Assembly: GCA_008330645.1 (NCBI GenBank)
Contig: VLTN01000022.1
Span: 1 to 64,000, forward strand
Source of the DNA: Cafeteria roenbergensis
Taxonomy: Eukaryota; Sar; Bigyra; Bicosoecida; Cafeteriaceae
DNA length: 64,000 bases
Reading direction: 5' to 3'
The translations under genes were made by a program, and so were the position numbers. Positions 1-60,613 of the stretch are shown here, one piece after another. Within the stretch, counting starts at the first letter, position 1, and each line of letters opens with the position of its first letter. The notes under the pieces are model-generated. The model made no database searches and had not been told where the DNA came from. It saw nothing but the letters and a program-made list of their open reading frames with translations.

Positions 1-1906
1 GCTGCGACCGTCGCCCCCGCCAGACGGCAGCACACGCACATTCGCACACCGCACCACGCCCTGCACCCCCAGCGCCCGGCCCCGGCCTGACAACCGCACC
101 ACGCCACCGACCCTGACCCTGACCGACACACCACCAGACCCCACGACACCCCGTGCCGCCGCCACGCCCCCTCCGCGACCGCCACCCCACACCCGCTGCG
201 GACACGCCGCCTCGCACACTGCGCGCAAGCCGCGGCGCCCCACCAACGCCGCCGGCCGTCCACTGCCCGCACCCGTCCACCCCCAACCGTACGCGCACAA
301 CCCACCCCGTGGCGGACGCCGCGACGCCGCAACGCCGCTCCGCCTCCGCTGCCACGGATCAACACCACCGCTCACCTTGTTTCGTGCCTCCACGTCGGCG
401 CCGCGATCCAGCAGCAGCCCCGCCGTCGACTCGTGGCCGTTCTGTGCAGCCAGCATGACCGCCGTCCAGCCCTTCTGCAGTCGCATCACCCAGCAACGAC
501 CACGCACAGCCACGCCAGTCGCCATCATGGCCGCCTCACCACCGCATGCCCTCCACCCACACACCGACCCGTGCGACACCCACGCCCCGGCCATCCAGCA
601 CAATGCCCAACACAGACACACCACACGCCTGCGCCCACCCGCCCCGGACCTCCTCACGGCCGCCGGCCATGCACCCGCAGCAGCACCCCACACACCACCA
701 TCGGCCACGGCTGCGACCCTCGCCCCCGCCAGACAAACAGCAACACGCACAGCCGCACACCGCACCACGACCTGCGCCCCCAACGCCCGGCCCCGGCCCC
801 GGCCCGCCACCCGCGCCCGCCACCGACCCTGACCCTGATCGACACACCACCAGGCCCCACGACACCCCGTGCCGCCGCCACGCCCCCTCCGCGACCGCCA
901 CCCCACACCCGCTGCGGACACGCCGCCTCGCACACTGCGCGCAAGCCGCCGCGCCCCACCAACGCCGCCGGCCCACCACTGCCCGCACCCGTCCACCCCC
1001 AACCATGCGCGCACACCCACCCCGCGGCGGACGCCGCGACACCGATCCGCCTCTGCTGCCACGGATCGACAACACCCCCGCTCACCTTGTTTCGTGCCTC
1101 CACGTCCGCGCCGCGATCCAGCAGCAGCCCCGCCGTCGACTCGTGGCCGTTCTGTGCAGCCAGCATGACCGCCGTCCAGCCATTCTGCAGTCGCATCACC
1201 CAGCAACGACCACGCACCGCCACCCCAGTCGCCATCATGGCCGCCTCACCACCGCATGCCCTCCACCCACACACCGCCCCGTGCGACAGACACCCACGCC
1301 CCGGCCATCAAGCACAATGCCCAACACAGACACACAACACGCATGCGCCTGCGCCCACCCTCCCCCAGAGCTCCTCACGGCCGCCGGCCATGCACCCGCA
1401 GCAGCACCCCACACACCGCCAGCGGCCACGGCTGCGACCCTCGCCCCGGCCAGACAAACAGCAACACGCACAGCCGCACACCGCACCACGACCTGCGCCC
1501 CCAACGCCCGGCCCCGGCCCCGTCCCGCCGCCCGCGCCCGCCACCGACCCTGACCCTGATCGACGCACCACCAGACCCCACGACACCCCGTGCCGCCAGC
1601 CATGCCCCCTCCGCGACCTCCACCCCACACCCGCTGCGGACACTCCGCCTCGCACACTGCGCGCAAGCCGCCCGGCCCCACCAACGCTGCCGGCCCAGCA
1701 CTGCCCGCACCCGTCCACCCCCAACCATGCGCGCACACCCACCCCGCGGCGGACACCGCGACGCCGATCCGCCTCTGCTGCCACGGATCAACAACACCCC
1801 CGCTCACCTTGTTTCGTGCCTCCACGTCCGCGCCGCGATCCAGCAGCAGCCCCACCGTCGACTCGTGGCCGTTCTGTGCAGCCACCATGACCGCCGTCCA
1901 GCCCTT
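1..1906 (-). repeat. ANK-A tandem exon-intron array
   Basis: This is the left edge of a tandem array whose unit is one 99-bp ankyrin exon plus an intron of about 610-620 bp. Unit starts are spaced 710 and 722 bp apart. The introns resemble those of ANK-B but carry their own shared variants. For example, all ANK-A introns seen read gccatgcacccgcagcag where ANK-B introns read gccatcgccccygcagcag. The plus strand is strongly A+C-rich, so the transcript is G+T-rich. Confidence 0.85.
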
Positions 1907-2517
1907 CTGCAGTCGCATCACCCAGCAACGACCACGCACCGCCACGCCAGTCGCCATCATGGCCGCCTCAATGCCTCGCACAACCTGAACGCATGACAGA
2001 AAGCAATGCCATGGCGAGCACATGCCCGAGTGTCAAGTCCAGGGTGCTTCGCAGGCTTCCAGAGTATTCTTCAACGCAGCCGTCAACAACCTCTCAGCTA
2101 CCGGCGCTCACTGGCGCCTCTGTCTCCACGTCCGCGCCACGGTTCAGCAGCCCTTCCACGAGGACGGTTGCTCCGGCAGCTGCTGCCTCGATGAGCAGCG
2201 GGCGCCCGCTCTGCAGGCAAGACATCGCAGCGAAAACAGCAAACAAACGTCAAGCTGCTCCCGACCTGCGCGGCTGCCTGTTCGCACCGAGCGTGCCCGC
2301 GCGCACCTGCGTCGCATGCCCCGGCATGCAAACGCCCAGTCTTGACCCCTGGCCAATCCGGCTGCGGGGTGCCCCAAGAGCCTGCCCCACAGCGGCCATG
2401 CGGCAGACGCACCAGACAGCTGTCCTTGCTGAGCCCGCCGTCGACTGCTGCCAGCACCTTGTCGAACTGGCCGGCCGCAATGGCGTCCGCGAGCGCATCT
2501 GGGGTGAGGTTGGCCAT
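376..2517 (-). CDS. ankyrin-repeat protein ANK-A, 5' part (3' end beyond left edge)
   Basis: This minus-strand gene encodes an ankyrin-repeat protein; its binding partner is unknown. Visible exons in coding order are 2413-2517, 2112-2210, 1808-1906, 1086-1184 and 376-474. The first exon (35 codons) starts at an ATG in a good context (gccATGGcc) with MANLTPDALADAIAAG, an N-cap-like half repeat, and ends at a GTGCGT donor. Each following exon is exactly 99 bp, encodes one 33-residue ankyrin repeat (core GWTAVMVAAQNGHEST followed by LLLDRGADVEARNK) and is bounded by CTGCAG acceptors and GTGAGC donors in phase 0. The gene continues off the left edge. The first three exons and the upstream region are nearly identical to ANK-B at an offset of 11,648 bp. 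The frames seen here are intact, so this looks like a working paralogue rather than a pseudogene. The splice model is inferred without transcripts. Confidence 0.82.
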
Positions 2518-3978
2518 GGCTGCTGGGGAAACGAGCCGCGCTTGAGCTGCTGAGGGTGCGCCTTGGCCTGAGGCGTTGCTTGCAGAGCGAGCAGCCGCAA
2601 TATTGCCGCGAATGGTCAATACTCGGCGCAGCGGCGCCGTGCAGACGACCGTGTTCCGAGCGTCGGCAGGCCGCGTGCGAGTGAACAGGCCAAGGTGGCT
2701 GGAAAGCTCAGGCACGGCGTGCCGGGGACCACACGGGGTCGCCCTCCGTGCCATCCCGAGGGACGGGAGGGGCGAGGCAAGCGATGGAATTGTGAACCGA
2801 GACGCTGCAGAGCACTTGCCTCAGCGCAGAAAATTGACAAGCCCAGGCGCAAACGGCCGTTCGGACGAGCGCACCCGATGACGCCCTGCGACTCGCGTTG
2901 CCGCCAGACTGTCGGGATCGATTGAACGGCGGCCGCTGCTCTCGTCATTGCTGCCCACTGGCGTCCGCGCGGGCGCGCCGTCCTGGCAGGCCCGAGTTGC
3001 AAAGCTGGACCTGAGCGTCCGGCATGGCTGCCCCCGCGGGGCAAAAGGCGCCGCACGGGGCCAAGGTTCTCAAGATGTGCGGTCTGAACGTGCTTTTTCC
3101 AGCCACGCACACCCCTTTCCCGGCCCAGAGAGGGCTCATGTCCGCTGCCGTGCGGGCGCTGGAGTCGGGCTCCAACGCCCTGCTTGAGTCGCCGACGGGA
3201 ACGGGCAAGACCCTCGCGTTGCTGTGTGCCGCCCTCTCGTGGCAGCGTGCGGAGCGGGAGCGGCTTGCGGAACGCCAGCAGAAGCGGGCAGCGGCCGTTG
3301 AGGCCGAGGCGAACCTCGCGCTGGACGCCGACGAGACCCCAAACATCGAGGCGCTGCTGAAGCGCGTGCAGGAGAACAACGCGGCTGCGCAGCGGGAGAG
3401 GGCGCCCCGGGTTGTTTTCGCGTCGCGCACGCACTCTCAGCTGCGGCAAGTGGTCAAGGAGCTCCGACGCTGTTCCTTTTTCCACTCGCATCGGGCATTC
3501 GTGGTGCAGGGCGGCGAGGAAGGCTTCTCGGCGCAGGGCCCTGCGGGGCAGGGAGGCACCGAGGGGGGCGCAGGGCGGGCTAGGGCCGCGCCGGTGGATG
3601 CCCCGGCGGTCGGCGGGTGCGCCTCCTCTTCGACCTCGTCTTCATCCTGCGGCGGAGCACCCGCAGCCGCAGCCGCCGCCAGCCCGCGCGCGTGGGGCAC
3701 ATCGGCAGCGTCCGTCGCGCACCGGCTCCGGGAAGACTCTGACTCGGACGGAACCGAACGCGGCGGCTCTGCAACCGGGCTCCGTGCGCTCGGCTGCACA
3801 GCGGCTTCCAGCCGCTCGCGGTTCCGCATGACCACTCTGGGGTCCCGCAAGCAGTACTGCGTCCACCACTCCGTGTCTCGTCAGTTGTTGGGGCGCGACG
3901 AGCTCTGCAGGGACCTGCTCCGGCGGAGGCAGTGCCCTCGCTACTCGGCCAAGACATCCTTGCTCATGTCGCTCCCTC
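1806..3978. repeat. left copy of segmental tandem duplication
   Basis: This segment matches 13454-15626 at a constant offset of 11,648 bp with no net insertion or deletion. It spans the first three exons of ANK-A, the divergent upstream region and the first 318 codons of FANCJ. In the helicase part I counted 12 base differences over about 955 bp, six synonymous and six replacement. Identity stops abruptly after position 3978. To the left of about 1806 only the looser array-level similarity remains. Confidence 0.9.
2518..3023. promoter_or_regulatory. divergent intergenic region, left copy
   Basis: These 506 bp lie between the start codon of ANK-A (minus) and that of the truncated FANCJ copy (plus), and presumably hold both promoters. 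I see no TATA box or other clear core element. The region is duplicated nearly unchanged at 14166-14671. Its role as a bidirectional promoter is inferred from position only. Confidence 0.4.
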
Positions 3979-3989: not shown

Positions 3990-4010
3990 TGTAAATTTGT
4001 GCTTGCTGTC
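3981..4010 (+). repeat. left arm of 30-bp terminal inverted repeat
   Basis: The arm begins TGTTTGTGATGTAAAT and ends GCTGTC. It matches the reverse complement of 4565-4594 apart from two single-base gaps. It starts two bases after the duplication junction. The flanking bases do not show a clear target-site duplication. Confidence 0.65.
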
Positions 4011-4132
4011 TTGTTTCTGGTTGGCAGAGTGGAGGCGAGAATCGCCGATGCTGACCTAGTGGCTGAAGATTCGGCTCGGCGGGGACCGCCACGGTCGCCC
4101 GAGGGACGGGAGGGTGGGTCAAACGAGTTCAC

Positions 4133-4212
4133 GCACACACCACACGGGGCGCGCGCGCGAGACGGTACGGGGGGTCGCCCGGGAAGCCCATGTGGGCTTG
4201 AGCACCGGGTGC
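4133..4212. repeat. imperfect direct repeat, copy 1
   Basis: An 80-bp segment begins with CA repeats, then ggggcgcgcgcg, and carries a palindromic centre aagcccatgtgggctt. It resembles 4371-4450 in the same orientation and lies inside the inverted-repeat pair. Confidence 0.5.
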
Positions 4213-4370
4213 GCTCGCTTCTGGGAGGGCGCAAAACGATTGACGATCGGCGAGGTGCAGCTCTGCCGTAGAAAGCAGAGCCACATGCGCTCGCAAGGTT
4301 TAGCGGTAGCGTTTCGATGCCAACCAAGTTGTACAGCAGCCCTAGATTTCGATCATTTCCAGAATCGAGC

Positions 4371-4643: not shown

Positions 4644-7600
4644 TCACCTCCAGCCACAGGCTCGGCGCCACAAGGCCAGGCTTGCGCGCCGATGCCAACG
4701 CTGGAAGCAGTCAGCTCGCTCAAGCACCCTTGCCACTGAGTCGTTGGCGGCAACGGAGAGCGCAGTTTCGCCGGCCTGTGAGCAAAAAGAAACAGGGCTC
4801 CGTGCAAGCAAACAGTGCATTGTTCAGCGCCAAGACGAGCGCTTCGAGAAAACCAACAGCAGCGCAGGACGTGCGGAGCACGAAAATGCCGCTGCCCGAC
4901 TCTTGTTCGCCTGCAAGGAACGTGGAGCAGCCCGAACCGAAACCAGGCGCAACTTACGACATTGGTCACCGCCACGTCTGCGCCCCGATCCAGCAGCTCC
5001 CGCACCATGGATTCCGTGCCCGCGGAAGCGGCCGTCAGCAATGCATTCCAGCCATCCTGTGCTCATGCGGCCCGGTCCACGATGCGCGCTCTTGTTGAGA
5101 GGCAACGGTGCCCACGAGCGAATTGAGGCACGAGATCCAACGCGTGCCAAGAGAGGCGAGTCGCGCGCACAGCGGATAGTCAGCCGCATGACGGCTCCCG
5201 AGTGCTACCCTCCTCACCTTATCGCAGGCACCAATATCGGCACCTGCCTTCAGGAGTAGACCAGCAACACCGAAACGGCGCCTTTTCAGCGCAATCAGCA
5301 GTGCCGTGGCGCCTGACTGCAAACCACGGCGGCTCAGAAGGACACGCACAAGAACCAGGCGGTGGCTTATAGCGCAAATCAGGAAGCAAGCGTGACTGGA
5401 ATGGTGCCTGAGGGCAGGAGAACAGCCAAGGGGCGCCAAGGCCGCCCGACGAGCGAACGGCCACGTGAGGCGCTCTGCCCGCCATTGTAGCAGCAGCTGC
5501 AAAGCAGACGTGTAGCTCCAGCGGCCGGTGGGAAGTCTTCGGAGAACGTGCCTTCACTTCACTGCCCGTGGACGCGAGGCGCTGCAAAGCACAGCAAAGG
5601 CGCACCGAACTCCGCGCCCCTACGTCGGCGCCGCGATCCAGCAGCAGCGCCGCCGTCGACTCGTGGCCGTGCTGTGCAGCCACCATGACCGCCGTCCAGC
5701 CATCCTGCAGTCGCATCACCCAGCAACGATCACGCACAGCCACGCCAGTCGCCATCCCGGCCCCCACGCCACCGCATGCCCTCCACCCACACACCACCCC
5801 GTGCGACAGACAGCCACGCCCCGGCCATCCAGCACAATGCCCAACACACACACCACACGCCTGCGCCCACACCCCCGAGCCTCGTCACGGCCGCCGGCCA
5901 TCGCCCCTGCAGCAGCACCCCACACACCGCCATCGGCCACGGCTGCGACCCTCGCCCCCCGCCAGCCAACCAGCGACACACACAGCCGCACACCGCGCCA
6001 CGCCCTGCGCCCCAAATGCCCGGCCCCGGCCCGCCACCCGCGCCCGCCACCCGCGCCTGACCCGGGCCGACACACCACCAGTCCCAACGACAACCCGTGC
6101 CGCCGCCATGACCCCCTCCGCGACCGCCACCCCGCACCCGCGGAGGACACGCCGCCTCGCACACTGCGCGCAAGCCGCAGCGCCCCACCAACGCTGCCGG
6201 CCGACCACTGCCCGCACCCGTCCACCGCCAACCATGCGAGCACACCCTGCCCGTGGCGGACAACGCGGCGCCGCTTCGCCACCACGGACACGGATCAACA
6301 ACGCCGCTCACCTTGTTTCGTGCCTCCACGTCGGCGCCGCGATCCAGCAGCAGCCTCACCGTCGACTCGTGGCCGTGCTGTGCAGCCACCATGACCGCCG
6401 TCCAGCCATCCTGCAGTCGCATCACCCAGCAACGATCACGCACAGCCACGCCAGTCGCCATCCCGGCCCCCACGCCACCGCATGCCCTCCACCCACACAC
6501 CACCCCGTGCGACAGACAGCCACGCCCCGGCCATCCAGCACAATGCCCAACACACACACCACACGCCTGCGCCCACACCCCCGAGCCTCGTCACGGCCGC
6601 CGGCCATCGCCCCTGCAGCAGCACCCCACACACCGCCATCGGCCACGGCTGCGACCCTCGCCCCCCGCCAGCCAACCAGCAACACACACATCCGCACGCC
6701 GCGCCACGCCCTGCGCCCCAAATGCCCGGCCCCGGCCCGCCACCCGCGCCCGCCACCCGCGCCCGCCACCCGCGCCTGACCCGGGCCGACACACCACCAG
6801 TCCCAACGACAACCCGTGCCGCCGCCATGACCCCCTCCGCGACCGCCACCCCGCACCCGCGGAGGACACGCCGCCTCGCACACTGCGCGCAAGCCGCAGC
6901 GCCCCACCAACGCTGCCGGCCGACCACTGCCCGCACCCGTCCACCGCCAACCATGCGAGCACACCCTGCCCGTGGCGGACAACGCGACGCCGCTTCGCCA
7001 CCGCGGACACGGATCAACAACACCACCGCTCACCTTGCTCCGTGCCTCCATGTCGGCGCCGCGATCCAGCAGCAGCCTCACCGTCGACTCGTGGCCGTTC
7101 TGTGCAGCCACCATGACCGCCGTCCAGCCGTTCTGCAGTCGCATCACCCAGCAACAGCCACGCACTGCCACGCCAGTCGCCATCACGGCCGCCACGCCAC
7201 CGCACGCCTTCCACCCACACACAACCTCGTGCGACAGACAGCCACGCCCCGGCCATCCAGCACAATGCCCAACACAGACACACCACACGCCTGCGCCCAC
7301 ACCCCCGAGCCTCGTCACGGCCGCCGGCCATCGCCCCTGCAGCAGCACCCCACACACCGCCATCGGCCACGGCTGCGACCCTCGCCCCCCGCCAGCCAAC
7401 CAGCGACACACACAGCCGCACACCGCGCCACGCCCTGCGCCCCAAATGCCCGGCCCCGGCCCGCCACCCGCGCCCGCCACCCGCGCCTGACCCGGGCCGA
7501 CACACCACCAGTCCCAACGACAACCCGTGCCGCCGCCATGACCCCCTCCGCGACCGCCACCCCGCACCCGCGGAGGACACGCCGCCTCGCACACTGCGCG

Positions 7601-10600
7601 CAAGCCGCAGCGCCCCACCAACGCTGCCGGCCGACCACTGCCCGCACCCGTCCACCGCCAACCATGCGAGCACACCCCGCCCGTGGCGGACAACGCGCCG
7701 CCGCTTCGCCACCGCGGACACGGATCAACAACACCGCCGCTCACCTTGCTCCGTGCCTCCACGTCGGCGCCGCGATCCAGCAGCAGCCCCGCCGTCGACT
7801 CGTGACCACTGTCTGCAGCCAGCATGACCGCCGTCCAGCCATCCTGCAGTCGCATCACCCAGCAACAGCCACGCACAGCCACGCCAGTCGCCATCACGGC
7901 CGCCACGCCACCGCACGCCCTCCACCCACACACAACCCCGTGCGGCAGACAACCAACGCCCCGGCCATCCAGCACACAATGCCCAACACACACACCACAC
8001 GCCTGCGCCCACACCCCCGAGCCTCGTCACGGCCGCCGGCCATCGCCCCCGCAGCAGCACCCCATGCACCGCCATCGGCCACGGCTGCGACCCTCGCCCC
8101 CGCCAGCCAACCAGCAACACGCACAGCCGCACACCGCGCCACGCCCTGCACCCGCAAAAGCCCAGCCCTGGCCCGCCATCCGCGCCCGCCACCCGCGCCC
8201 GCCACCGACCCTGACCCTGGCCGACACACCACCAGACCCCACGACACCCCGTGCCGCCGCCATGACCCCCTCCGCGACCGCCACCCCACACCCGCGGAGG
8301 ACACGCCGCCTCGCACACTGCGCGCAAGCCGCAGCGCCCCACCAACGCTGCCGGCCGACCACTGCCCGCACCCGTCCACCGCCAACCATGCGAGCACACC
8401 CCGCCCGTGGCGGACAACGCGACGCCGCTTCGCCACCGAGGACACGGATCAACAACGCCGCTCACCTTGTTTCGTGCCTCCACGTCGGCGCCGCGATCCA
8501 GCAGCAGCGCCGCCGTCGACTCGTGGCCGTGCTGTGCAGCCACCATGACCGCCGTCCAGCCATCCTGCAGTCGCATCACCCAGCAACGATCACGCACAGC
8601 CACGCCAGTCGCCATCCCGGCCCCCACGCCACCGCATGCCCTCCACCCACACACCACCCCGTGCGACAGACAGCCACGCCCCGGCCATCCAGCACACAAT
8701 GCCCAACACACACACCACACGCCTGCGCCCACACCCCCGAGCCTCGTCACGGCCGCCGGCCATCGCCCCCGCAGCAGCACCCCACACACCGCCATCGGCC
8801 ACGGCTGCGACCCTCGCCCCCGCCAGCCAACCAGCAACACACACATCCGCACACCGCGCCACGCCCTGCACCCGCAAATGCGCAGCCCTAGCCCGCCACC
8901 CGCGCCCGCCACCGACCCTGACCCGGGCCGACACACCACCAGACCCCACGACACCCCGTGCCGCCGCCATGACCCCCTCCGCGACCGCCACCCCACACCC
9001 GCGGAGGACACGCCGCCTCGCACACTGCGCGCAAGCCGCAGCGCCCCACCAACGCTGCCGGCCGACCACTGCCCGCGCCCGTCCACCGCCAACCGCACGA
9101 GCACACCCACCCCGTGGCGGACACCGCGACGCCGCTTCGCCTCCGCGGACACGGATCAACACCACCGCTCACCTTGTTTCGTGCCTCCACGTCGGCGCCG
9201 CGATCCAGCAGCAGCCCCACCGTCGACTCGTGGCCGTTCTGTGCAGCCACCATGACCGCCGTCCAGCCCTTCTGCAGTCGCATCACCCAGCAACGACCAC
9301 GCACAGCCACGCCAGTCGCCATCCCGGCCCCCACGCCACCGCATGCCCCCCACCCACACACCACCCCGTGCGGCAGACACCCACGCCCCGGCCATCCAGC
9401 ACACAATGCCCAACACACACACCACACGCCTGCGCCCACACCCCCGAGCCTCGTCACGGCCGCCGGCCATCGCCCCTGCAGCAGCACCCCACACACCGCC
9501 ATCGGCCACGGCTGCGACCCTCGCCCCCGCCAGCCAACCAGCAACACACACATCCGCACACCGCGCCACGCCCTGCACGCGCAACAGCGCAGCCCTGGCC
9601 CGCCACCCGCGCCCGCCACCCGCACCTGACCCGGGCCGACACACCACCAGACCCCACGACACCCCGTGCCGCCGCCATGACCCCCTCCGCGACCGCCACC
9701 CCACACCCGCGGAGGACACGCCGCCTCGCACACTGCGCGCAAGCCGCAGCGCCCCACCAACGCTGCCGGCCGACCACTGCCCGCGCCCGTCCACCGCCAA
9801 CCACACGAGCACACCCACCCCGTGGCGGACACCGCGACGCCGCTTCGCCTCCGCGGACACGGATCAACAACACCCCCGCTCACCTTGTTTCGTGCCTCCA
9901 TGTCGGCGCCGCGATCCAGCAGCAGCCCCACCGTCGACTCGTGGCCGTTCTGTGCAGCCACCATGACCGCCGTCCAGCCATCCTGCAGTCGCATCACCCA
10001 GCAACGACCACGCACAGCCACGCCAGTCGCCATCACGGCCGCCACGCCACCGCACGCCCTCCACCCACACACAACCCCGTGCGACAGACAGCCAACGCCC
10101 CGGCCATCCAGCACACAATGCCCAACACACACACCACACGCCTGCGCCCACACCCCCGAGCCTCGTCACGGCCGCCGGCCATCGCCCCCGCAGCAGCACC
10201 CCATGCACCGCCATCGGCCACGGCTGCGACCCTCGCCCCCGCCAGCCAACCAGCAACACACACATCCGCACACCGCGCCACGCCCTGCACCCGCAAATGC
10301 CCAGCCCTAGCCCGCCACCCGCGCCCGCCACCCGAGCCGACACACCACCAGACCCCACGACACCCCGTGCCGCCGCCATGACCCCCTCCGCGACCGCCAC
10401 CCCACACCCGCGGAGGACACGCCGCCTCGCACACTGCGCGCAAGCCGCAGCGCCCCACCAACGCTGCCGGCCCAGCACTGCCCGCACCCGTCCACCGGCA
10501 ACCACACGCGCACACCCCGCCCGTGGCGGACGCCGCGACGCCGCTTCGCCTCCGCGGACACGGATCAACAACACCCCGCTCACCTTGTTTCGTGCCTCCA

Positions 10601-13600
10601 TGTCGGCGCCGCGATCCAGCAGCAGCCTCACCGTCGACTCGTGGCCGTTCTGTGCAGCCACCATGACCGCCGTCCAGCCATTCTGCAGTCGCATCACCCA
10701 GCAACAGCCACGCACAGCCACGCCAGTCGCCATCACGGCCGCCGCACCACCGCACGCCCTCCACCCACACACAACCCCGTGCGACAGACAGCCACGCCCC
10801 GGCCATCCAGCACACAATGCCCAACACACACACACCACACGCCTGCGCCCACACCCCCGGACCTCGTCACGGCCGCCGGCCATCGCCCCCGCAGCAGCAC
10901 CCCATGCACCGCCATCGGCCACGGCTGCGACCCTCGCCCCCGCCAGCCAACCAGCAACACACACATCCGCACACCGCGCCACGCCCTGCACGCGCAACAG
11001 CGCAGCCCTGGCCCGCCACCCGCGCCCGCCACCCGCACCTGACCCGGGCCGACACACCACCAGACCCCACGACACCCCGTGCCGCCGCCATGACCCCCTC
11101 CGCGACCGCCACCCCACACCCGCGGAGGACACGCCGCCTCGCACACTGCGCGCAAGCCGCAGCGCCCCACCAACGCTGCCGGCCGACCACTGCCCGCACC
11201 CGTCCACCGCCAACCGCACGAGCACACCCACCCCGTGGCGGACACCGCGACGCCGCTTCGCCACCGAGGACACGGATCAACAGCGCCGCTCACCTTGTTT
11301 CGTGCCTCCACGTCGGCGCCGCGATCCAGCAGCAGCGCCGCCGTCGACTCGTGGCCGTGCTGTGCAGCCACCATGACCGCCGTCCAGCCCTTCTGCAGTC
11401 GCATCACCCAGCAACGATCACGCACAGCCACGCCAGTCGCCATCCCGGCCCCCACGCCACCGCATGCCCTCCACCCACACACCACCCCGTGCGACAGACA
11501 GCCAACGCCCCGGCCATCCAGCACACAATGCCCAACACACACACCACACGCCTGCGCCCACACCCCCGAGCCTCGTCACGGCCGCCGGCCATCGCCCCCG
11601 CAGCAGCACCCCATGCACCGCCATCGGCCACGGCTGCGACCCTCGCCCCCGCCAGCCAACCAGCAACACACACATCCGCACACCGCGCCACGCCCTGCAC
11701 CCGCAAATGCCCAGCCCTAGCCCGCCACCCGCGCCCGCCACCCGCACCTGACCCGGGCCGACACACCACCAGACCCCACGACACCCCGTGCCGCCGCCAT
11801 GACCCCCTCCGCGACCGCCACCCCACACCCGCGGAGGACACGCCGCCTCGCACACTGCGCGCAAGCCGCAGCGCCCCACCAACGCTGCCGGCCGACCACT
11901 GCCCGCACCCGTCCACCCCCAACCACACGAGCACACCCACCCCGTGGCGGACACCGCGACGCCGCTTCGCCTCCGCGGACACGGATCAACAACACCCCCG
12001 CTCACCTTGTTTCGTGCCTCCATGTCGGCGCCGCGATCCAGCAGCAGCCTCACCGTCGACTCGTGGCCGTTCTGTGCAGCCACCATGACCGCCGTCCAGC
12101 CGTTCTGCAGTCGCATCACCCAGCAACGACCACGCACAGCCACGCCAGTCGCCATCACGACCGCCACGCCACCGCACGCCCTCCACCCACACACAACCCC
12201 GTGCGACAGACAGCCAACGCCCCGGCCATCCAGCACACAATGCCCAACACACACACCACACGCCTGCGCCCACACCCCCGAGCCTCGTCACGGCCGCCGG
12301 CCATCGCCCCCGCAGCAGCACCCCATGCACCGCCATCGGCCACGGCTGCGACCCTCGCCCCCGCCAGCCAACCAGCAACACACACATCCGCACACCGCGC
12401 CACGCCCTGCACCCGCAAATGCCCAGCCCTAGCCCGCCACCCGCGCCCGCCACCCGCGCCCGCCACCCGCGCCCGCCACCCGCGCCCCACCCGCACCTGA
12501 CCCGGGCCGACACACCACCAGACCCCACGACACCCCGTGCCGCCGCCATGACCCCCTCCGCGACCGCCACCCCACACCCGCGGAGGACACGCCGCCTCGC
12601 ACACTGCGCGCAAGCCGCAGCGCCCCACCAACGCTGCCGGCCGACCACTGCCCGCACCCGTCCACCGCCAACCACACGAGCACACCCACCCCGTGGCGGA
12701 CGCCGCGACGCCGCTTCGCCTCCGCGGACACGGATCAACAACACCTCCGCTCACCTTGCTCCGTGCCTCCATGTCGGCGCCGCGATCCAGCAGCAGCCTC
12801 ACCGTCGACTCGTGGCCGTTCTGTGCAGCCACCATGACCGCCGTCCAGCCGTTCTGCAGTCGCATCACCCAGCAACGACCACGCACAGCCACGCCAGTCG
12901 CCATCACGACCGCCACGCCACCGCACGCCCTCCACCCACACACAACCCCGTGCGACAGACAGCCAATGTCCCGGCCATCCAGCACACAATGCCCAACACA
13001 CACACCACACGCCTGCGCCCACACCCCCGAGCCTCGTCACGGCCGCCGGCCATCGCCCCCGCAGCAGCACCCCATGCACCGCCATCGGCCACGGCTGCGA
13101 CCCTCGCCCCCGCCAGCCAACCAGCAACACACACATCCGCACACCGCGCCACGCCCTGCACCCGCAAATGCCCAGCCCTAGCCCGCCACCCGCGCCCGCC
13201 ACCCGAGCCGACACACCACCAGACCCCACGACACCCCGTGCCGCCGCCATGACCCCCTCCGCGACCGCCACCCCACACCCGCGGAGGACACGCCGCCTCG
13301 CACACTGCGCGCAAGCCGCAGCGCCCCACCAACGCTGCCGGCCGACCACTGCCCGCACCCGTCCACCGCCAACCACACGAGCACACCCCGCCCGTGGCGG
13401 ACGCCGCGACGCCGCTTCGCCTCCGCGGACACGGATCAACAACACCCCCGCTCACCTTGCTCCGTGCCTCCACGTCGGCGCCGCGATCCAGCAGCAGCCC
13501 CACCGTCGACTCGTGGCCGTTCTGTGCAGCCACCATGACCGCCGTCCAGCCCTTCTGCAGTCGCATCACCCAGCAACAGCCACGCACAGCCACGCCAGTC

Positions 13601-14165
13601 GCCATCATGGCCGCCTCAATGCCTCGCACAACCTGAACGCATGACAGAAAGCAATGCCATGGCGAGCACATGCCCGAGTGTCAAGTCCAGGGTGCTTCGC
13701 AGGCTTCCAGAGTATTCTTCAACGCAGCCGTCAACAACCTCTCAGCTGTTGGCGCTCACTGGCGCCTCTGTCTCCACGTCCGCGCCACGGTTCAGCAGCC
13801 CTTCCACGAGGACGGTTGCTCCGGCAGCTGCTGCCTCGATGAGCAGCGGGCGCCCGCTCTGCAGGCAAGACATCGCAGCGAAAACAGCAACCAGCCGTCA
13901 AGCAGCTCCCGACCTGCGCGGCTGCCTGTTCGCACCGAGCGTGCCCGCGCGCACCTGCGCCGCATGCTCCGGCATGCAAACGCCAATTCTTGACCCCTGG
14001 CCAATCCGCCTGCGGGGTGCCCCAAGAGCCTGCGCCACAGCAGGCAGTCGGCAAACGCACCAGACAGCTGTCCTTGCTGAGCCCGCCGTCGACTGCTGCC
14101 AGCACCTTGTCGAACTGGCCGGCCGCAATGGCGTCTGCGAGCGCATCTGGGGTGAGGTTGGCCAT
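4644..14165 (-). CDS. ankyrin-repeat protein ANK-B, one repeat per exon (17 exons)
   Basis: Complete ankyrin-repeat gene of about 573 codons; partner and location are unknown (no signal peptide or membrane segment seen). Exons in coding order: 14061-14165, 13760-13858, 13456-13554, 12755-12853, 12006-12104, 11294-11392, 10584-10682, 9884-9982, 9173-9271, 8466-8564, 7745-7843, 7034-7132, 6312-6410, 5606-5704, 5218-5316, 4958-5056, 4644-4775. Exon 1 (35 codons) begins MANLTPDALADAIAAG. Exons 2-16 are each 99 bp, one 33-residue repeat, phase 0 on both sides. Exons 3-14 are near-identical (xGWTAVMVAAQxGHEST, then LLLDRGAD). Exons 2 (SGRPLLIEAAAAG), 15 (SGATALLIALKRR) and 16 (DGWNALLTAASAG) are divergent and flank the array. 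The last exon holds a partial capping repeat (AGETALSVAANDSVARVL), then a basic, Trp-containing tail and TGA. Most introns are about 600-650 bp. Splicing is inferred from consensus sites and from perfect phase agreement. Confidence 0.85.
5606..13554 (-). repeat. ANK-B tandem exon-intron array (12 near-identical units)
   Basis: Twelve units of one 99-bp exon plus one intron run from 13554 down to 5606. Successive exon starts are 701, 749, 712, 710, 700, 711, 707, 721, 711, 722 and 706 bp apart. Introns are nearly as similar to one another as the exons are, including sequence far from the splice sites. This means whole exon-plus-intron blocks were duplicated or homogenised. Some of the length variation comes from copy number of a 13-bp minisatellite. 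Confidence 0.9.
12432..12483. repeat. 13-bp minisatellite within an ANK-B intron
   Basis: Four perfect head-to-tail copies of gcccgccacccgc lie in the intron between exons 4 and 5. The same block is present in fewer copies in neighbouring introns, for example near 6740-6775 and 10311-10327. It accounts for much of the extra length of this 749-bp unit. Confidence 0.85.
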
Positions 14166-15626
14166 GGCTGCCGGGGAAACGAGCCGCGCTTGAGCTGCTG
14201 AGGGTGCGCCGTGGTCTGAGGCGTTGCTTGCAGAGCGAGCAGCCGCAATATTGCCGCGAATGGTCAATACTCGGCGCAGCGGCGCCGTGCAGACGACCGT
14301 GTTCCGAGCGGCGGCAGGCCGCGTGCGAGTGAAGAGGCCAAGGAGGCTGGAAAGCTCAGGCCTGGCGTGCCGGGGACCACACGGGGTCGCCCTCCGTGCC
14401 ATCCCGAGGGACGGGAGGGGCGAGGCAAGCGATGGAATCGTGAACCGAGACGCTGCAGAGCACTTGTCTAAACGCAGAAAATTGACAAGCCCAGGCGCAA
14501 ACGGCCGTTCGGACGAGCGCACCCGATGACGCCCTGCGACTCGCGTTGCCGCCAGACTATCGGGATCGATTGAACGGCGGCCGCTGCTCTCGTCATTGCT
14601 GCCCGCTGGCGTCCGCGCGGGCGCGCCGTCCTGGAAGGCCCGAGTTGCAAAGCTGGACCTGATCGTCTGGCATGGCTGCCCCCGCAGGGCAAAAGGCGCC
14701 GCACGGGGCCAAGGTTCTCAAGATGTGCGGTCTGAACGTGCTTTTTCCAGCCACGCACACCCCTTTCCCGGCCCAGAGAGGGCTCATGTCCGCTGCCGTG
14801 CGGGCGCTGGAGTCGGGCTCCAACGCCCTGCTTGAGTCGCCGACGGGAACGGGCAAGACCCTCGCGTTGCTGTGTGCCGCCCTCTCGTGGCAGCGTGCGG
14901 AGCGGGAGCGGCTTGCGGAGCGCCAGCAGAAGCGGGCAGCGGCCGTTGAGGCCGAGGCGAACCTCGCGCTGGACGCCGACGAGACCCCAGACATCGAGGC
15001 GCTGCTGAAGCGCGTGCAGGAGAACAACGCGGCTGCGCAGCGGGAGAGGGCGCCCCGGGTTGTTTTCGCGTCGCGCACGCACTCTCAGCTGCGGCAAGTG
15101 GTCAAGGAGCTCCGACGCTGTTCCTTTTTCCACTCGCATCGGGCATTCGTGGTGCAGGGCGGCGAGGAAGGCTTCTCGGCGCAGGGCCCTGCGGGGCAAG
15201 GAGGCACCGAGGGGGGCGCAGGGCGGGCTAGGGCCGCGCCGGTGGATGCCCCGGCGGTCGGCGGGTGCGCCTCCTCTTCGACCTCGTCTTTATCCTGCGG
15301 TGGAGCACCCGCAGCCGCAGCCGCCGCCAGCCCGCGCGCGTGGGGCACATCGGCAGCATCCGTCGCGCACCGGCTCCGGGAAGACTCTGACTCGGACGGA
15401 ATCGAACGCGGCGGCTCTGCAACCGGGCTCCGTGAGCTCGGCTGCACAGCAGCTGCCAGCCGCTCGCGGTTCCGCATGACCACTCTGGGGTCCCGCAAGC
15501 AGTACTGCGTCCACCACTCCGTGTCTCGTCAGTTGTTGGGGCGCGACGAGCTCTGCAGGGACCTGCTCCGGCGGAGGCAGTGCCCTCACTACTCGGCCAA
15601 GACATCCTTGCTCATGTCGCTCCCTC
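13454..15626. repeat. right copy of segmental tandem duplication
   Basis: This is the counterpart of 1806-3978 and contains ANK-B exons 1-3, the divergent upstream region and the start of the intact FANCJ gene. The helicase frame continues past 15626 here, so this side keeps the original structure. Confidence 0.9.
14166..14671. promoter_or_regulatory. divergent intergenic region between ANK-B and FANCJ
   Basis: These 506 bp separate the ANK-B and FANCJ start codons, which point away from each other. It presumably carries both promoters. No TATA box or named operator is recognisable. It matches 2518-3023 closely. Confidence 0.4.
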
Positions 15627-16696
15627 CTGTGTGGGACGTGGAGGACGCGGTGGCGATGAGCCACGCAGCAACCGCGCGCGGCCGGCTGGGTGGCGGGTCG
15701 AGCAGGCGGGTGACAGGCGGCTGCCCTTTTTATGCGGCGCGAGACATGGTAGAGTCCGCAGATCTGATCCTGTGCCCCTACACCTACCTGATCAACCCGT
15801 CCATCCGCGCCGCGATGAGTCTGCAGTTGAGCGGCGCCGCCGTAGTGCTGGATGAGGCGCACAACATCGAGGACCAGTGCCGAGAGGCGGCATCCTTCTC
15901 CACGGGGCTGGAAGAGCTCAAGGGCGCAGCGCTGGGCATGGCACGCGCCGCCATCAGCGCCCACTACGCTCGGCACCCGCCCCCTGCTTCTGGCTCTGCC
16001 GGCGTGAGCGTGCAGCCAGACCCCTCCGTCGTGCCGGAGCTGGTCGCCGCGTACCGGGAGCTGACCCGCTTGCTCCTGCGAGTGTGCGCGTGGGCGGAGC
16101 GCGCGGCGCCGGACCTGCCCGCGGCCGCCCAGGCAGGCTCCGTCAATGCGCGAGGGGGACGGGACAGAGCCGGGTGGGGGCGGGGCCGCGGCCGGGCTGG
16201 GCAGTCAACTGGCATCGTGCCGCTCGACGAGCGACCCACTTCGCTGGCGGCAGAGCTGGGAAAGAGCGAGGCGACAGTTCGGCTCGTGCTGGGCAGTGAC
16301 ATCATGGACGAAGTCCTGGGAAGGGTTCCGGAATCCGTTGCCGCCTGCGCGCGAGGGAGGCGGCAAGAGGACGTGGCGAGTAGGGCCGAGGTAGTGGCCG
16401 CTGGTGCGCCGCTCGACGGACAGCCAGCAGACGCGGAGCACGACTTGGCGACCATCGCAGCCGAGGCGATCAAGGCGGCTGGCTCTGCCACGGGTCCGCC
16501 GCACTCTTCCCGAATCGGGCCGTCGCTCGTGTGGTCAGGAAAGCAGCCTCGTGGTGAGGCTGCAACGGCCAAGTCCCCGCTCGAGGCAGCTGCCGCCAAG
16601 TGGGGCGTTCCGTCTGCGAGGGCCGTGGCGGCGTTCGCCGGCCTGCTCAAAGCAGTGGGCGACGACGAGGCCGGAGACAGCAAGCAGGATGCCGAC

Positions 16697-16748
<52 letters not shown>

Positions 16749-19700
16749 GCGGCGGCGGCAGCAGCAGCAGCAGTGGCAGCAGCAGTGGCGGCGGGGGCAG
16801 GGGCCGCAATATGCGAGTGATGGCCGGGCAGGCCACGCTTGCGCTGGTGGGCGAGCTGCTGCAGACACTGGGGTTTCTCCACTCCACGGTTCGGGATGGC
16901 CTGGGTGCGGGCGGAGGCGCAGAGCGGCCGGCGGCAGACGCATTCAGACTTGGCCTCGCCAGGACGCCTCGGCGGTACTGCAGCCACCGGCCAATGCCCT
17001 GGGCAAATGCGAGCCGCCGGGCAGGGGCTGGCTCCGAGACCGGCGGTGGCGAGGCCGCATCTGCCGGCTTCGTAGAGTGGGTGGACGCTTCTGGCGACGA
17101 CGCTGACGGCCTGGAAGCGGGCCCTTCGGGAGTGACACCGGCCAGCAGCGCGGCGCAGCCGAGCGGGGCAGGGAGCGGGAGGCGTTCCTCCCGCAAGCGC
17201 GCCGTGGCAGCGCCCGGCTGGATCCAAGGAGACGTTCAGCTGGACCTGTGGTGCCTCAACGCCGCGGTGGCCTTCAGCCCTGTGCAGGCGACGGCACACT
17301 CAGTGCTTCTCACGTCCGGCACGCTGTCTCCCGCAGACAGCTTCGCGAGCGAGCTGGGCACCAGCTTTCCCGTGCGGCTGAGCGCTCCGCACCACGCAGG
17401 GCTGTCTTTGCTTCCGTCGTGGGTCAGCGAGTGCTGCGGCGTGGAGCTCGACGGCTCGGCTGTGAGTCGCAAGAGTGCCGTGTGGCAAGACGCCCTGGGC
17501 AGGCTTCTCGTCGAGGCCGCCGGGCGCATTCCTGGGGGCCTCCTGGTGTTTTTCCCGTCGTACGACACGCTGACGAGGTGCGTGGAGCGCTGGGCGGAGA
17601 GCCCTGCGCGGATGGTGACGGCAGCCAACGCGCTTCGTCCCGCCGGGGAAGGGGTCGAGGCTGCTGCCGAAGCGGCAACGCGCCCTCCCAACACGCTGGA
17701 GCACCTCGCCGCGTTTAAGCGCCTTTGCGTGGAGCCCCGCTCGCAAGGCCCTCATTTTAAGCGTGTGATGCGCAAGTACGTGCGGTCGATTCGCCGCTGG
17801 CAGCGACGCGCCGGACGAGAAGAGCTGCAGGAGGCAGCCGGCGTGAAGGCAAGGTCCGATCCCCGCTCCGACGAGCGGCGCAGCCGGGGGGCGGCGGCGC
17901 GACCCTCCGCAGCCGAGGGCGTGCGCCTGTCGTTCGAGAAGGCGTCGGGCACACTCGGCCGCCGCTGGGGCAACCGCGACCACGACGGCGAAGGTGACAG
18001 TGACGGTGAAAGTTACGTTGTCGCGGACGGCGTCGGTGACGGTGGCGCCGCCGATTGCGAGGGAAGCGGTGAAGACAGCGGGGAGCCGGCGTACGCGAGC
18101 AGCGAGGAGTCGGATCTGGGCGCTGTCGACACGGCGGGTCGAGAGGCGGTGAGCGTGGGGGACGCGGGGAGGAGGCGCAGGCTTGAGGCGGCAAGCCTGC
18201 GCGCTCGGTTGCAGGCCGCGAGAGCTGGGCAGGGGCGGGGCGCAGGCCAGCGGGGAAGGTGGCGAGGCCAGGATGCGCTCGGCGGCCACACGGGCGGCTT
18301 CCGATCAGGCGTTCCGTTGCTTCGGCGGCTGTGGAGCGAGCGGTCGGACTTTGGGCCCGGGGCAGGCATGCCGGCCGACGCTCAAACTGGCGCAGTGCTG
18401 TTCGCGGTGTTCCGCGGAAAAGTGAGCGAGGGAATCGACTTCGCGGACGATGCGGCCAGAGGCGTGATTCTGGTGGGCACGCCTTACGCCGCCCTGGACG
18501 CGCCTGTGAGGCTGAAGCAGGCGTACCAGGACGAGCTGTCATCTGAGTACAGGGCTGCAGAGGCAGCCAGTGGGGCGCAAGGGCAGCTGCAGCTGCCACT
18601 GGGCTCCCAGCCAAGCAGCCCTGCGCGCGGCGCGAGGTCGGCCCGCGCATCGCAAGAGCCCCTTGCTGGCGGGCTGTGGTACCGTCACCAAGCCTACCGC
18701 GCGCTGAACCAGGCACTGGGGCGCTGCATCCGCCACGCGAACGACTGGGGCTCGGTCATCCTTGTGGACTCACGTTTGCGGGAGCAGCTCGTGCGCCCCC
18801 CGTCTGACTCGCTCCTTAGCGCGTGGTTCGTGCGCAAGTTTCAAGAAGCTGGGGTGCGGAACGGGTCCACTGCGGTGTCGGTCCTCACAGCCACTGCGGG
18901 ATTCTCGCAGAAGCAGCTGGCGAAGCCGCAGCGCCCCTCTCAGGGCGCCCTGCCCGTGCCCGGGAACCAGTCCGAGGCCCCTTCGTCGGCGTCGTCGTCC
19001 GATGCTTCAAGTTCGCCTGTTAGCAGTCCGCGGGGGAGCGGCCTCGCTGGCACACCCGCCTGTGCCTCGGCACAGGCCCAGGTCCCTCCGCCTCCCCCTG
19101 CCACCAGCCAGCACCAGGCGCCGCCCTCTGCGCCAAGCTCTTCTGCCGCCGGGCACGCGGCCGCCACCCGACAGGCTCCCCGGCGCGTCAGTCCGGTTCA
19201 GCAGCGCTCGCCTGGGCAGCTGCTGAGCTGGGCAGGGCCTCAGGCCGCGCAGGAGGCGGCGACTGTGGCCATCGACGCCGACCCGTCGCCTGCTGCCGGA
19301 GCGCTCGGCACCCGCGGGGTGCGAGACTTGCTCGAGGCAGAGCCAGTGAGCCCCGCCCGCCCCCCTGGGTCCTTCCAGCTGTCAGCCTCGTCGCTCTCGG
19401 GCGGCACCATTCCCGCCGCAGAAGCGCCGTCGCGCCGGCTGTGGTGCGCGTTGTGCGCCTGCCGCGTCAACGTGGATGCTGGGCCCGACGCGCAGGACCC
19501 CCCTCCGCTGCAGCTGCCCGTTCCCTTCGCCCCCTCCTCAGCGCTGCACCGCAAGTTCGCCTCGCACTCGGACGCTGGGGCCGCGGCTCCGGGAGGCGCC
19601 GCGATTTCGGTCGCGTCTGGCGGGGCTGCGTCGCCGGCGGCCCCGCCTCGGTGCTGGGTGGTTCGCACCGATTCCCTCACGCCTTTCCACGCGATGCCGG

Positions 19701-20263
19701 TGGTGGCCAGGCCAGTCGTGGCCGGGGTCGAGGCCGCGGGCGAAGCCAGGGCTCCGCCCTGGGTAGAGGAGGCGGCACGGAGTTTGGGATTGCTGCCAGG
19801 CGCAGGCGCCAGTGCCCCGCCGGCCGCGCTGGAGGCATGGTGCGCCCACTCCGGCGTGGCTGTCCGGCCGCTCTTCTGCCGCTCGAGGCCGACCCGCCCC
19901 GAGTTCCTTGGCGTGTCCGTTGTGGCGGCCGCCTCGCCTGAGCTCAGAGGGTGTACGTTGTTGCTGGCAGACGCATGCCTCACGTCCAAGCCCGAGCCGC
20001 TGGACGCCGCCCCTGCAGAGCAGACGGCGGAGCCCCTTGAGCCGGCCGCACCGGCCCTCGCGGCCGCTGCCTGCCCGCCGTCCTCGCAGCCAGCCCTGGG
20101 CGTGGCTCGCGCGGGGAGCACGACGGCCCACCCCAGGAAACGCGAGCGATCGCCCCCCTCGCTCACGCAGCCTGCGGTTTCAGGCCCCAAGCGATCTGCT
20201 CGGCCGGCGCAGCCCAGGATACGCCAGCTGGAGCTGCGGCCTGCCGGACAGGCGCCGTCGTAG
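14672..20263 (+). CDS. BRIP1: FANCJ/BRIP1-like Fe-S DNA helicase
   Basis: Superfamily 2 Fe-S helicase of the XPD group, closest to FANCJ (BRIP1), a 5'-3' DNA helicase acting in interstrand-crosslink repair and G-quadruplex unwinding in the nucleus. The ATG at 14672 opens a single 1,863-codon frame. Visible landmarks are the LFPATHTPFPAQ Q-motif region, Walker A ESPTGTGKT (55-63), motif Ia FASRTHSQL, Fe-S cysteines 279, 295, 304 and 351, DEAH at 394-397, motif IV LTSGTLSPADSFASELG, motif V GKVSEGIDFADD and motif VI LNQALGRCIRHANDWG (about 1345-1360). The last is diagnostic for FANCJ as against RTEL1 or XPD. It is longer than the human protein (1,249) because of disordered inserts, including a Ser run near 676-692 and acidic Arg/Ser/Gly-rich linkers, and a long C-terminal tail containing WCALCACRV. 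The last 1,024 bp overlap the ERI1-like frame on the other strand. Confidence 0.9.
16698..16747 (+). repeat. AGC trinucleotide repeat coding for serine
   Basis: An uninterrupted run of about 16 AGC units encodes a polyserine stretch in a disordered insert of the helicase. Short GGC/AGC mixed repeats follow, giving Gly-Ser tracts. Confidence 0.9.
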
Positions 20264-60162: not shown

Positions 60163-60613
60163 GGCGACTGGAGCGTGTAGGTTGTGTGGAGCTGGGGTGC
60201 GCAACAGCGAGATGGCAGCCTGACTCTGAATAGAGGCTCGATGTTCGAATAGCGGCGACATTCACGGCTTTTCGCAACTACGATCCATCGTATTGGCCAG
60301 CAGCGAGTCAACACTCTGGCACAAGAGCATCAGACCGGTCGGGCGCCAAGTGAGGGGGGCGAAAGCCGCCGCGGAAAGCAACAACCCAAGGCGCAGGGAA
60401 CGCGCGGCTGGGTCCGAGGGCTTGTTGCTCTCATCCGCTTGAGCCGGAGGCTTACCCTGCCTCGCGGCGGCGAATGTCGTCACCCGCTCCCCCGCAGTGA
60501 CGGACCGGAACCCAAGTCAGCACCTGCTTGGGCGAAAGTGCAACAATGTTTGCGGGGGCGCTGCGGCCGGCGAGAGGCCTGAGCCGGCCACTGTTCCATC
60601 AAGCGAGCCGGGC
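60163..60613 (+). other. intergenic region between formin and CLU/TPR gene
   Basis: These 451 bp lie between two same-strand genes. The reading frame of the downstream gene is open back to 60443 without an ATG. A good acceptor-like sequence (cgctcccccgcag, ending at 60497) raises the possibility of a short 5' exon further left. I could not identify one with a matching ATG and donor. Confidence 0.5.

What the first reader, a model, noticed from the sequence alone, without database searches (positions are those of the whole stretch)
4644..14165. Exact one-exon-one-ankyrin-repeat gene with all-symmetric phase-0 exons
Fifteen successive exons of ANK-B are each 99 bp, start at ankyrin position 1 and end at position 33, with phase-0 introns on both sides. 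Any exon, or set of exons, can be skipped, duplicated or deleted without changing frame or cutting a repeat. The near-identical introns would favour unequal crossing-over and alternative pairing of splice sites. Together this gives a modular locus able to change repeat number by recombination and possibly repeat composition by splicing. Ankyrin genes elsewhere often have mixed phases and boundaries, so this regularity is striking. Whether the cell uses it to diversify the protein is my inference.
Basis: partly seen in the sequence, partly recalled or inferred. Interest (0 to 1): 0.75.

Follow-up and report, generated by a model that had tools for sequence, protein, structure and literature searches.

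The report
One-exon-per-repeat ankyrin gene arrays
A high-GC eukaryote carries many genes in which each ankyrin repeat sits on its own interchangeable 99-base exon, and the repeats differ mainly where ankyrins touch their targets, which looks like a gene family built to vary what it binds.

Summary
ANK-B (window 4644-14165, minus strand) gives a clean 573-residue, 17-exon model in which fifteen successive internal exons are exactly 99 nt, each one ankyrin repeat, phase 0 on both sides. It is not unique: the same ~712-bp exon-intron unit occurs in at least eight other genes or gene pieces, and a second family has a ~341-bp unit. In 21 stretches 177 of 193 ankyrin hits are AG|99|GT, against 0 of 46 repeats in intronless ankyrin genes of this genome.

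The better finding is the exon-intron comparison. Within arrays, introns are similar while the six codons that DARPin design randomises (positions recalled) change amino acid 2.7-17 times faster per site than introns in 12 of 16 arrays, ANK-B included (4.4x). Best reading: arrays grow and homogenise by recombination in repeated introns, and selection diversifies the binding face. This works like brown-algal one-exon-one-LRR ROCO genes and fungal NLR repeats, but ANK-B has no receptor domain. Splicing diversity, strain polymorphism and an immune role are untested.

The parts
14061..14165 (-). ANK-B exon 1 (105 nt, ATG at 14165, ends phase 0 before GTGCGT)
13760..13858 (-). ANK-B exon 2, N-terminal capping ankyrin repeat, 99 nt
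13456..13554 (-). ANK-B core repeat exon 1, 99 nt
12755..12853 (-). ANK-B core repeat exon 2, 99 nt
12006..12104 (-). ANK-B core repeat exon 3, 99 nt
11294..11392 (-). ANK-B core repeat exon 4, 99 nt
10584..10682 (-). ANK-B core repeat exon 5, 99 nt
9884..9982 (-). ANK-B core repeat exon 6, 99 nt
9173..9271 (-). ANK-B core repeat exon 7, 99 nt
8466..8564 (-). ANK-B core repeat exon 8, 99 nt
7745..7843 (-). ANK-B core repeat exon 9, 99 nt
7034..7132 (-). ANK-B core repeat exon 10, 99 nt
6312..6410 (-). ANK-B core repeat exon 11, 99 nt
5606..5704 (-). ANK-B core repeat exon 12 (last core exon, different donor GTGCGC), 99 nt
5218..5316 (-). ANK-B diverged C-terminal repeat exon, 99 nt; conserved in C29 and C85
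4958..5056 (-). ANK-B diverged C-terminal repeat exon, 99 nt; conserved in C29 and C85
4644..4775 (-). ANK-B last exon with stop codon
5606..13554 (-). tandem array of ~712-bp exon-intron units (introns 601-650 nt)
1..2517 (-). ANK-A, paralogue with N-cap exon (2112-2210) and core exons 1808-1906, 1086-1184, 376-474; cut off by the start of the contig
   Evidence: its ATG at 2517 read from the alignment

Best explanation
ANK-B is one member of a large family of ankyrin genes whose repeats are carried one per exon on symmetric phase-0 exons. A unit of one exon plus one intron is the piece that is duplicated, deleted and homogenised by unequal crossing-over or gene conversion within each locus (supported by within-locus similarity and by different repeat numbers in paralogues; which of the two processes is inference). 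Selection keeps most of the ankyrin framework and the splice sites but favours amino-acid change at the few codons that form the ligand-facing surface (supported by substitution rates against introns and against framework synonymous sites). The product is a capped ankyrin solenoid whose length and binding face vary between genes. Its likely use is recognition of variable partners, for instance of a parasite, virus or mate; that last step is inference only.
For: Gene model of 573 aa with ends conserved between loci. Same unit in ANK-A and at C29, C85, C111, C133, C14 and two genes of C38; longer matches are 93-98% identical within ANK-B, 84-89% at ANK-A, C29, C85 and C111, and about 67-72% at C14 and C38. 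177 of 193 ankyrin hits are AG|99|GT in the exon-array stretches, 0 of 46 in four intronless ankyrin loci. Amino-acid-changing steps per site at the six DARPin-randomised codons exceed intron changes per site in 12 of 16 arrays at p<0.003: ANK-B 4.4x, C34 16.9x, C101 10.8x, C18 8.9x, C94 6.2x. Nonsynonymous distance at nine contact codons exceeds framework synonymous distance in 15 of 16 arrays, e.g. ANK-B 0.124 against 0.045, C29 0.206 against 0.036, C94 0.435 against 0.080. Synonymous-only differences at five contact codons are rare in several arrays (4 of 478 pairs in C94, 0 of 148 in C29, 0 of 160 in C14).
Against: Four of 16 arrays do not pass: C38a p=0.024, C38b 0.19, C78d 0.32, C63b3 0.095; their introns are the more diverged ones, with C51 and C78a2. 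In ANK-B itself the effect is modest: 8 changes at six codons, and the contact-versus-framework N/S test is not significant (p=0.28). Introns may be too slow a yardstick: framework amino-acid change per site exceeds intron change in 5 of 16 arrays (C14, C94, C18, C63a, C101) and framework synonymous distance exceeds intron distance 2-4 fold in C101, C18 and C63a, so the large ratios there shrink to about 2-3 against synonymous sites. C85 has 22 of 66 and C38a 12 of 94 synonymous-only pairs. Multi-base changes imported in one conversion tract would inflate the counts. No polymorphism, expression or ligand data. Contact positions are recalled from DARPin design. Intronless ankyrin arrays look similarly conserved, so the exon structure may be incidental.
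Confidence: 0.65

Rival explanations
1. Ordinary ancient exon-repeat correspondence plus neutral tandem duplication: ankyrin genes of this lineage inherited one exon per repeat, arrays expand and are homogenised by recombination, and variable positions are simply those where ankyrins tolerate change.
For: Surface positions vary in ankyrins generally (established knowledge, recalled); diverged N-cap and C-terminal exons share the same boundaries, so the exon pattern is old. C38b, C78d and C63b3 show no clear excess over introns. In five arrays even framework codons outrun introns.
Against: Tolerance alone cannot exceed the neutral rate; contact codons exceed intron change 2.7-17 fold in 12 of 16 arrays and framework synonymous distance in 15 of 16.
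Confidence: 0.25
2. The exon cassette also works by splicing: near-identical introns and symmetric exons let the cell skip exons and make many isoforms from one locus, as reported for brown-algal LRR exons. (Compatible with the best explanation.)
For: All 15 ANK-B exons are phase-neutral and their donors and acceptors are near-identical along the core array; six internal exons elsewhere are out of frame and would be tolerable only if skipped (my reading); brown-algal ROCO genes with such exons have several splice variants (passages).
Against: No transcript data. Uniform sites equally predict constant inclusion. The out-of-frame exons may be assembly errors or mark dead genes.
Confidence: 0.25
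3. Targeted hypermutation of the contact codons, rather than selection, produces the variation.
For: Change is concentrated in a few codons and often involves two or three bases of a codon (means of 1.38-2.29 differing bases per differing codon over 16 arrays).
Against: Synonymous-only differences at contact codons are rare in several arrays (0 of 148 pairs C29, 0 of 160 C14, 4 of 478 C94; but 22 of 66 in C85), which needs selection on the protein. No mutator was looked for.
Confidence: 0.05
4. Assembly artefact: collapsed or chimeric reads created the arrays.
For: Contigs C22 and C133 end inside arrays, and C129 holds a damaged-looking stretch.
Against: ANK-B units differ from the query unit by 2-7%, all 15 ANK-B exons are intact, and the same architecture occurs at many loci.
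Confidence: 0.03

Closest known systems
Brown-algal ROCO (LRR-ROC-COR) genes with shuffled LRR exons, and brown-algal NB-ARC-TPR genes (passages of PMC11378527; Zambounis et al. 2012 not held)
   Same: One repeat per exon of constant length, symmetric phase, tandem exon duplication, diversifying selection on the concave side of the repeat.
   Different: There 72-bp phase-2 LRR exons joined to a GTPase domain; here 99-bp phase-0 ankyrin exons in a protein with ankyrin repeats only (ANK-B). Alternative splicing is reported there and untested here.
Fungal NOD-like receptors with WD, ANK or TPR repeats of high internal conservation (passages of PMC4986451)
   Same: Highly similar repeats within a gene, different repeat numbers, diversifying selection on the concave binding surface of ANK repeats, suggested concerted evolution.
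   Different: Fungal genes carry NACHT or NB-ARC and effector domains; the word intron does not occur in that paper's text. Here no such domain was found in ANK-B and each repeat has its own exon.
Vertebrate ankyrin genes such as ANK1 (recalled, no call)
   Same: Many repeat exons of 99 or 198 bp that follow the 33-residue repeat.
   Different: Old, diverged repeats and introns; no within-locus homogenisation or contact-codon diversification known to me.
DARPins (passages of PMC8683736)
   Same: N-cap, internal 33-residue repeats with fixed framework and variable surface positions, C-cap.
   Different: Designed binders; the position numbers used here are recalled, the passages seen do not give them.

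Membership tests
Ankyrin repeat proteins (Pfam Ank clan) | 33-residue ankyrin repeat in tandem | tested here: met
   Pfam Ank_2 E=9.4e-171 for the spliced model; single exon matches Ank 1-32 of 33; PDB ankyrins and DARPins match three joined repeats
One-exon-one-repeat shuffled candidate receptors (brown-algal ROCO / NB-TPR type) | each repeat on its own exon, same length, same phase | tested here: met
   15 of 15 repeat exons in ANK-B; 177 of 193 hits over 21 stretches, the other 16 being 10 first exons and 6 shifted exons by my reading
One-exon-one-repeat shuffled candidate receptors (brown-algal ROCO / NB-TPR type) | diversifying selection at ligand-facing sites | tested here: met
   12 of 16 arrays p<0.003 against introns, ANK-B 4.4x, p=8.7e-4; no formal codon model was run, and introns may be slow in some arrays
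One-exon-one-repeat shuffled candidate receptors (brown-algal ROCO / NB-TPR type) | LRR or TPR repeats with ROC-COR or NB-ARC domain | tested here: not met
   ANK-B: ankyrin families dominate; VWA_3_C, MreC and Peptidase_M16 pass their cut-offs only as sums, with no single stretch passing, and overlap the repeats
One-exon-one-repeat shuffled candidate receptors (brown-algal ROCO / NB-TPR type) | alternative splicing of repeat exons | not testable with these tools
   no transcripts
Fungal NLRs with high internal conservation | repeats over 85% identical within the gene | tested here: inconclusive
   mean pairwise identity 0.872 among 12 ANK-B core repeats, range 0.76-1.00; 0.895 in C29, 0.863 in C14, but 0.806 in C34, 0.727 in C94 and 0.723 in C63a (six arrays examined); the published measure over 100 residues was not computed
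Fungal NLRs with high internal conservation | NACHT or NB-ARC domain | tested here: not met
   none in ANK-B; not tested for the other loci

The most novel reading that the evidence does not exclude
This GC-rich eukaryote holds a germline (and possibly splicing-amplified) repertoire of exon-cassette ankyrin receptors: dozens of genes whose interchangeable repeat exons are reshuffled while their binding codons are driven to change, an ankyrin-based recognition system parallel to the LRR and NLR systems.
Probability: 0.3. Interest if true: 0.82.

Novelty: new variant of a known kind. Interest (0 to 1): 0.6.

Why it matters
Each repeat brings its own yardstick, the adjoining intron, so recombination, conversion and selection can be compared repeat by repeat. 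If the diversification reading holds, it adds ankyrins to LRR and TPR as repeats that eukaryotes have packaged as one-exon cassettes for variable recognition, and gives a testable candidate recognition family. I found no description of such ankyrin exon arrays in my searches of open-licence papers, which miss most subscription journals.

Tried and rejected
Intron retention as coding sequence: disfavoured for ANK-B because 7 of 11 introns carry a stop in the continuing frame, lengths are not held to multiples of three, and introns diverge more than exons between loci.

Allele comparison: C10 against C129 looked like two haplotypes with different exon numbers, but C129 holds a stretch that looks like damaged consensus and single-base indels, so I draw nothing from it. 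The end of C63 and the start of C78 are collinear, 98% identical over 2.1 kb, with about 3.4 kb, roughly one gene, extra in C63; alleles and paralogues cannot be told apart without reads. C133 is 100% identical (rounded) to the helicase of C22 over 2,722 bp, then 97.5% over 3,488 bp, then a differing array; same limit.

Shuffling of short modules between loci: 11 of 55 codon 11-14 haplotypes of the second family occur in two or more arrays, among the listed ones often in closely related array pairs such as C63b3/C78d and C34/C101; not used.

Naming the organism: the 18S search failed three times.

Full report
What was checked. The window is the first 64 kb of contig C22 of a 36.3-Mb, 167-contig assembly without a name, 65-78% GC in 2-kb steps. 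Spliced together with a 105-nt first exon and a last exon they give a 573-residue protein from ATG 14165 to a stop ending at 4644, exactly the interval given. Pfam finds ankyrin repeats throughout; VWA_3_C, MreC and Peptidase_M16 also pass their cut-offs as sums of many weak matches, with no single stretch passing, and I disregard them. A single exon aligns to positions 1-32 of the 33-position Ank profile, so 'starts at position 1, ends at 33' is right in Pfam's register.

Are the introns introns? No transcripts were available. The indirect evidence agrees: 7 of 11 core introns have a stop in the frame continuing from the exon (4 do not), and their lengths are 2, 1 and 0 mod 3 in 5, 4 and 2 cases; exon consensus is 89-98% identical between six loci while intron consensus is 66-90%; the second family keeps the same repeat boundaries with shorter introns, mostly 239-245 nt. 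In four intronless ankyrin loci of the same genome, AG|99|GT occurs at 0 of 46 repeat registers that my pattern recognised.

It is a family. The 712-bp unit searched as DNA finds the window's two arrays and arrays or pieces on C29, C85, C111, C133, C14 and C38, weaker pieces on C146, then by the exon end alone many loci of the second family (the search scores only its best candidates and lists a part, so counts are lower bounds). In 21 stretches (window plus 20 fetched) my scan at a score of 45 found 193 ankyrin hits; three shuffles of the window gave one chance score above 45. 177 of 193 are AG|99|GT. Of the other 16, by my reading, 10 are first exons, which have no acceptor, and 6 are shifted by a base. 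A query from the 5' part of a second-family gene gives 57 rows, 28 of which reach past its first coding exon (my count; it includes the query itself and near-identical C63/C78 pairs). A single repeat of that family gives 150 scored matches out of 1083 candidates, also on C10, C129, C8 and C15 at spacings near 300-313 bp; of these only C10 and C129 were read, and their repeats are mostly AG|99|GT too.

Recombination. Longer matches within ANK-B are 93-98% identical to the query unit, ANK-A 88-89%, C29, C85 and C111 84-89%, C14 70-72%, C38 67-71%. Adjacent ANK-B units are slightly more alike (0.968) than the most distant pair (0.947). Gene ends are conserved while core number differs: 12 in ANK-B, 13 in C29, 14 in C14, 9 and 7 in the two C38 genes. 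This supports growth, loss and homogenisation of exon-intron units; whether by unequal crossing-over or conversion is inference.

Where the repeats differ. Over 69 exons of the first family and 93 of the second (only AG|99|GT exons, those below a score of 115 or 85 left out), nonsynonymous distance in the second family peaks at exon codons 11, 3, 12, 14 and 1 (0.66 to 0.46), is 0.08 or less at codons 2, 4, 6, 9, 10, 21-27 and 29, and is intermediate (0.16-0.33) at codons 15-20. In DARPin numbering (recalled) exon codons 33, 1, 3, 11, 12, 31 are positions 2, 3, 5, 13, 14, 33, the randomised ones. I looked at the variability before fixing this set, but the set comes from DARPin design. Of 21 arrays defined, the 16 with five or more exons were tested. 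Counting minimal amino-acid-changing steps per nonsynonymous site against minimal changes per intron site, 12 of 16 pass p<0.003: C22B (ANK-B) 4.4x, C29 3.9x, C85 4.2x, C14 4.7x, C94 6.2x, C78a2 2.9x, C34 16.9x, C18 8.9x, C63a 5.9x, C63b2 4.3x, C51 2.7x, C101 10.8x; C38a (p=0.024), C38b (0.19), C78d (0.32) and C63b3 (0.095) do not.

Limits of that test. Framework amino-acid change per site is below the intron level in 11 of 16 arrays but above it in C14, C94, C18, C63a and C101, and framework synonymous distance is 2-4 times the intron distance in C101, C18 and C63a. Introns are thus a slow yardstick there. Against framework synonymous distance, nonsynonymous distance at a nine-codon contact set (partly chosen after seeing the data) is higher in 15 of 16 arrays, C63b3 being the exception and C38a and C63b2 nearly equal. 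A permutation of codons, on 11 arrays, puts the five a-priori contact codons above random codons at p<0.05 in 8 of 11 (C85 0.051, C14 0.061 and C38b 0.28 do not). Pairs are not independent and conversion tracts could inflate step counts, so p values are indicative.

ANK-B itself. The effect is present but modest: ten distinct repeats among twelve core exons, mean identity 0.872; eight changing steps at the six codons; contact-versus-framework N/S test p=0.28. The tryptophan at exon codon 3 is fixed in ANK-B, unlike in the second family.

How it probably works. A capped ankyrin solenoid whose repeats are cassettes: recombination between repeated introns can add or remove a repeat without touching frame or fold, and selection favours new residues on the binding face. 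Shown: anatomy, paralogue variation in number, rate excess at contact codons. Inferred: splicing, polymorphism within the species, binding, and any role in recognition. One second-family gene (L054) ends in a charged, heptad-like tail by eye, which would suit oligomerisation.

Comparison with print. In passages of PMC11378527, brown-algal ROCO genes have each LRR on its own 72-bp phase-2 exon, four positively selected concave sites and several splice forms; the paper credits Zambounis et al. 2012, which is not held. In passages of PMC4986451, fungal NLR repeats, ankyrins included, have high internal conservation, repeat-number polymorphism and selected sites mostly on the concave surface. PMC1553488 (passages) discusses exon shuffling as one of several routes of repeat expansion. 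So the principle is known; I did not find the ankyrin, phase-0, receptor-domain-free form described in my searches (open-licence papers only). Verdict: real, regular, part of a large family; a new variant of a known kind, raised in interest by the contact-codon result.

Noticed in passing
window 1-3978 and 11633-15626: Segmental duplication at 92% identity: ANK-A with a copy of the start of the neighbouring helicase gene, which breaks off near 3978.
   Followed up: partly
window 14672-20263: 1863-residue DEAD_2 / Helicase_C_2 helicase ORF, starting about 500 bp from the ANK-B start codon on the other strand.
   Followed up: partly
window 4004-4361: Dispersed repeat of 358 bp: 38 of 54 listed matches cover 300 bases or more at 85-100%, the window's own included; only 40 of 174 candidates were scored.
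   Followed up: partly
window 60497-64000: Open frame running off the window with a 126-bp period array of highly similar 42-residue repeats, TPR-like by eye, without introns.
   Followed up: no
L002-L005 (C28, C126, C162): Intronless ankyrin genes with 34-residue very similar repeats; the C126 and C162 frames (612 and 523 aa) look like versions with different repeat number.
   Followed up: partly
L048, L054, L058, L049 (second family): Introns of constant 242 nt (15 of 16 in C94, 6 of 6 in C18, 5 of 5 in C101) and of 240-243 nt in C78a2 and C51 although copies there differ by about 20%; reason unknown.
   Followed up: no
L048-L058, second family: Donor sites mostly GTCAGC, with C at intron position 3, unlike GTGAGC of the first family.
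   Followed up: no
L041, L043, L049, L050, L053, L056: Single out-of-frame or truncated repeat exons inside otherwise regular arrays; could be assembly error, dead genes or skipped exons.
   Followed up: no
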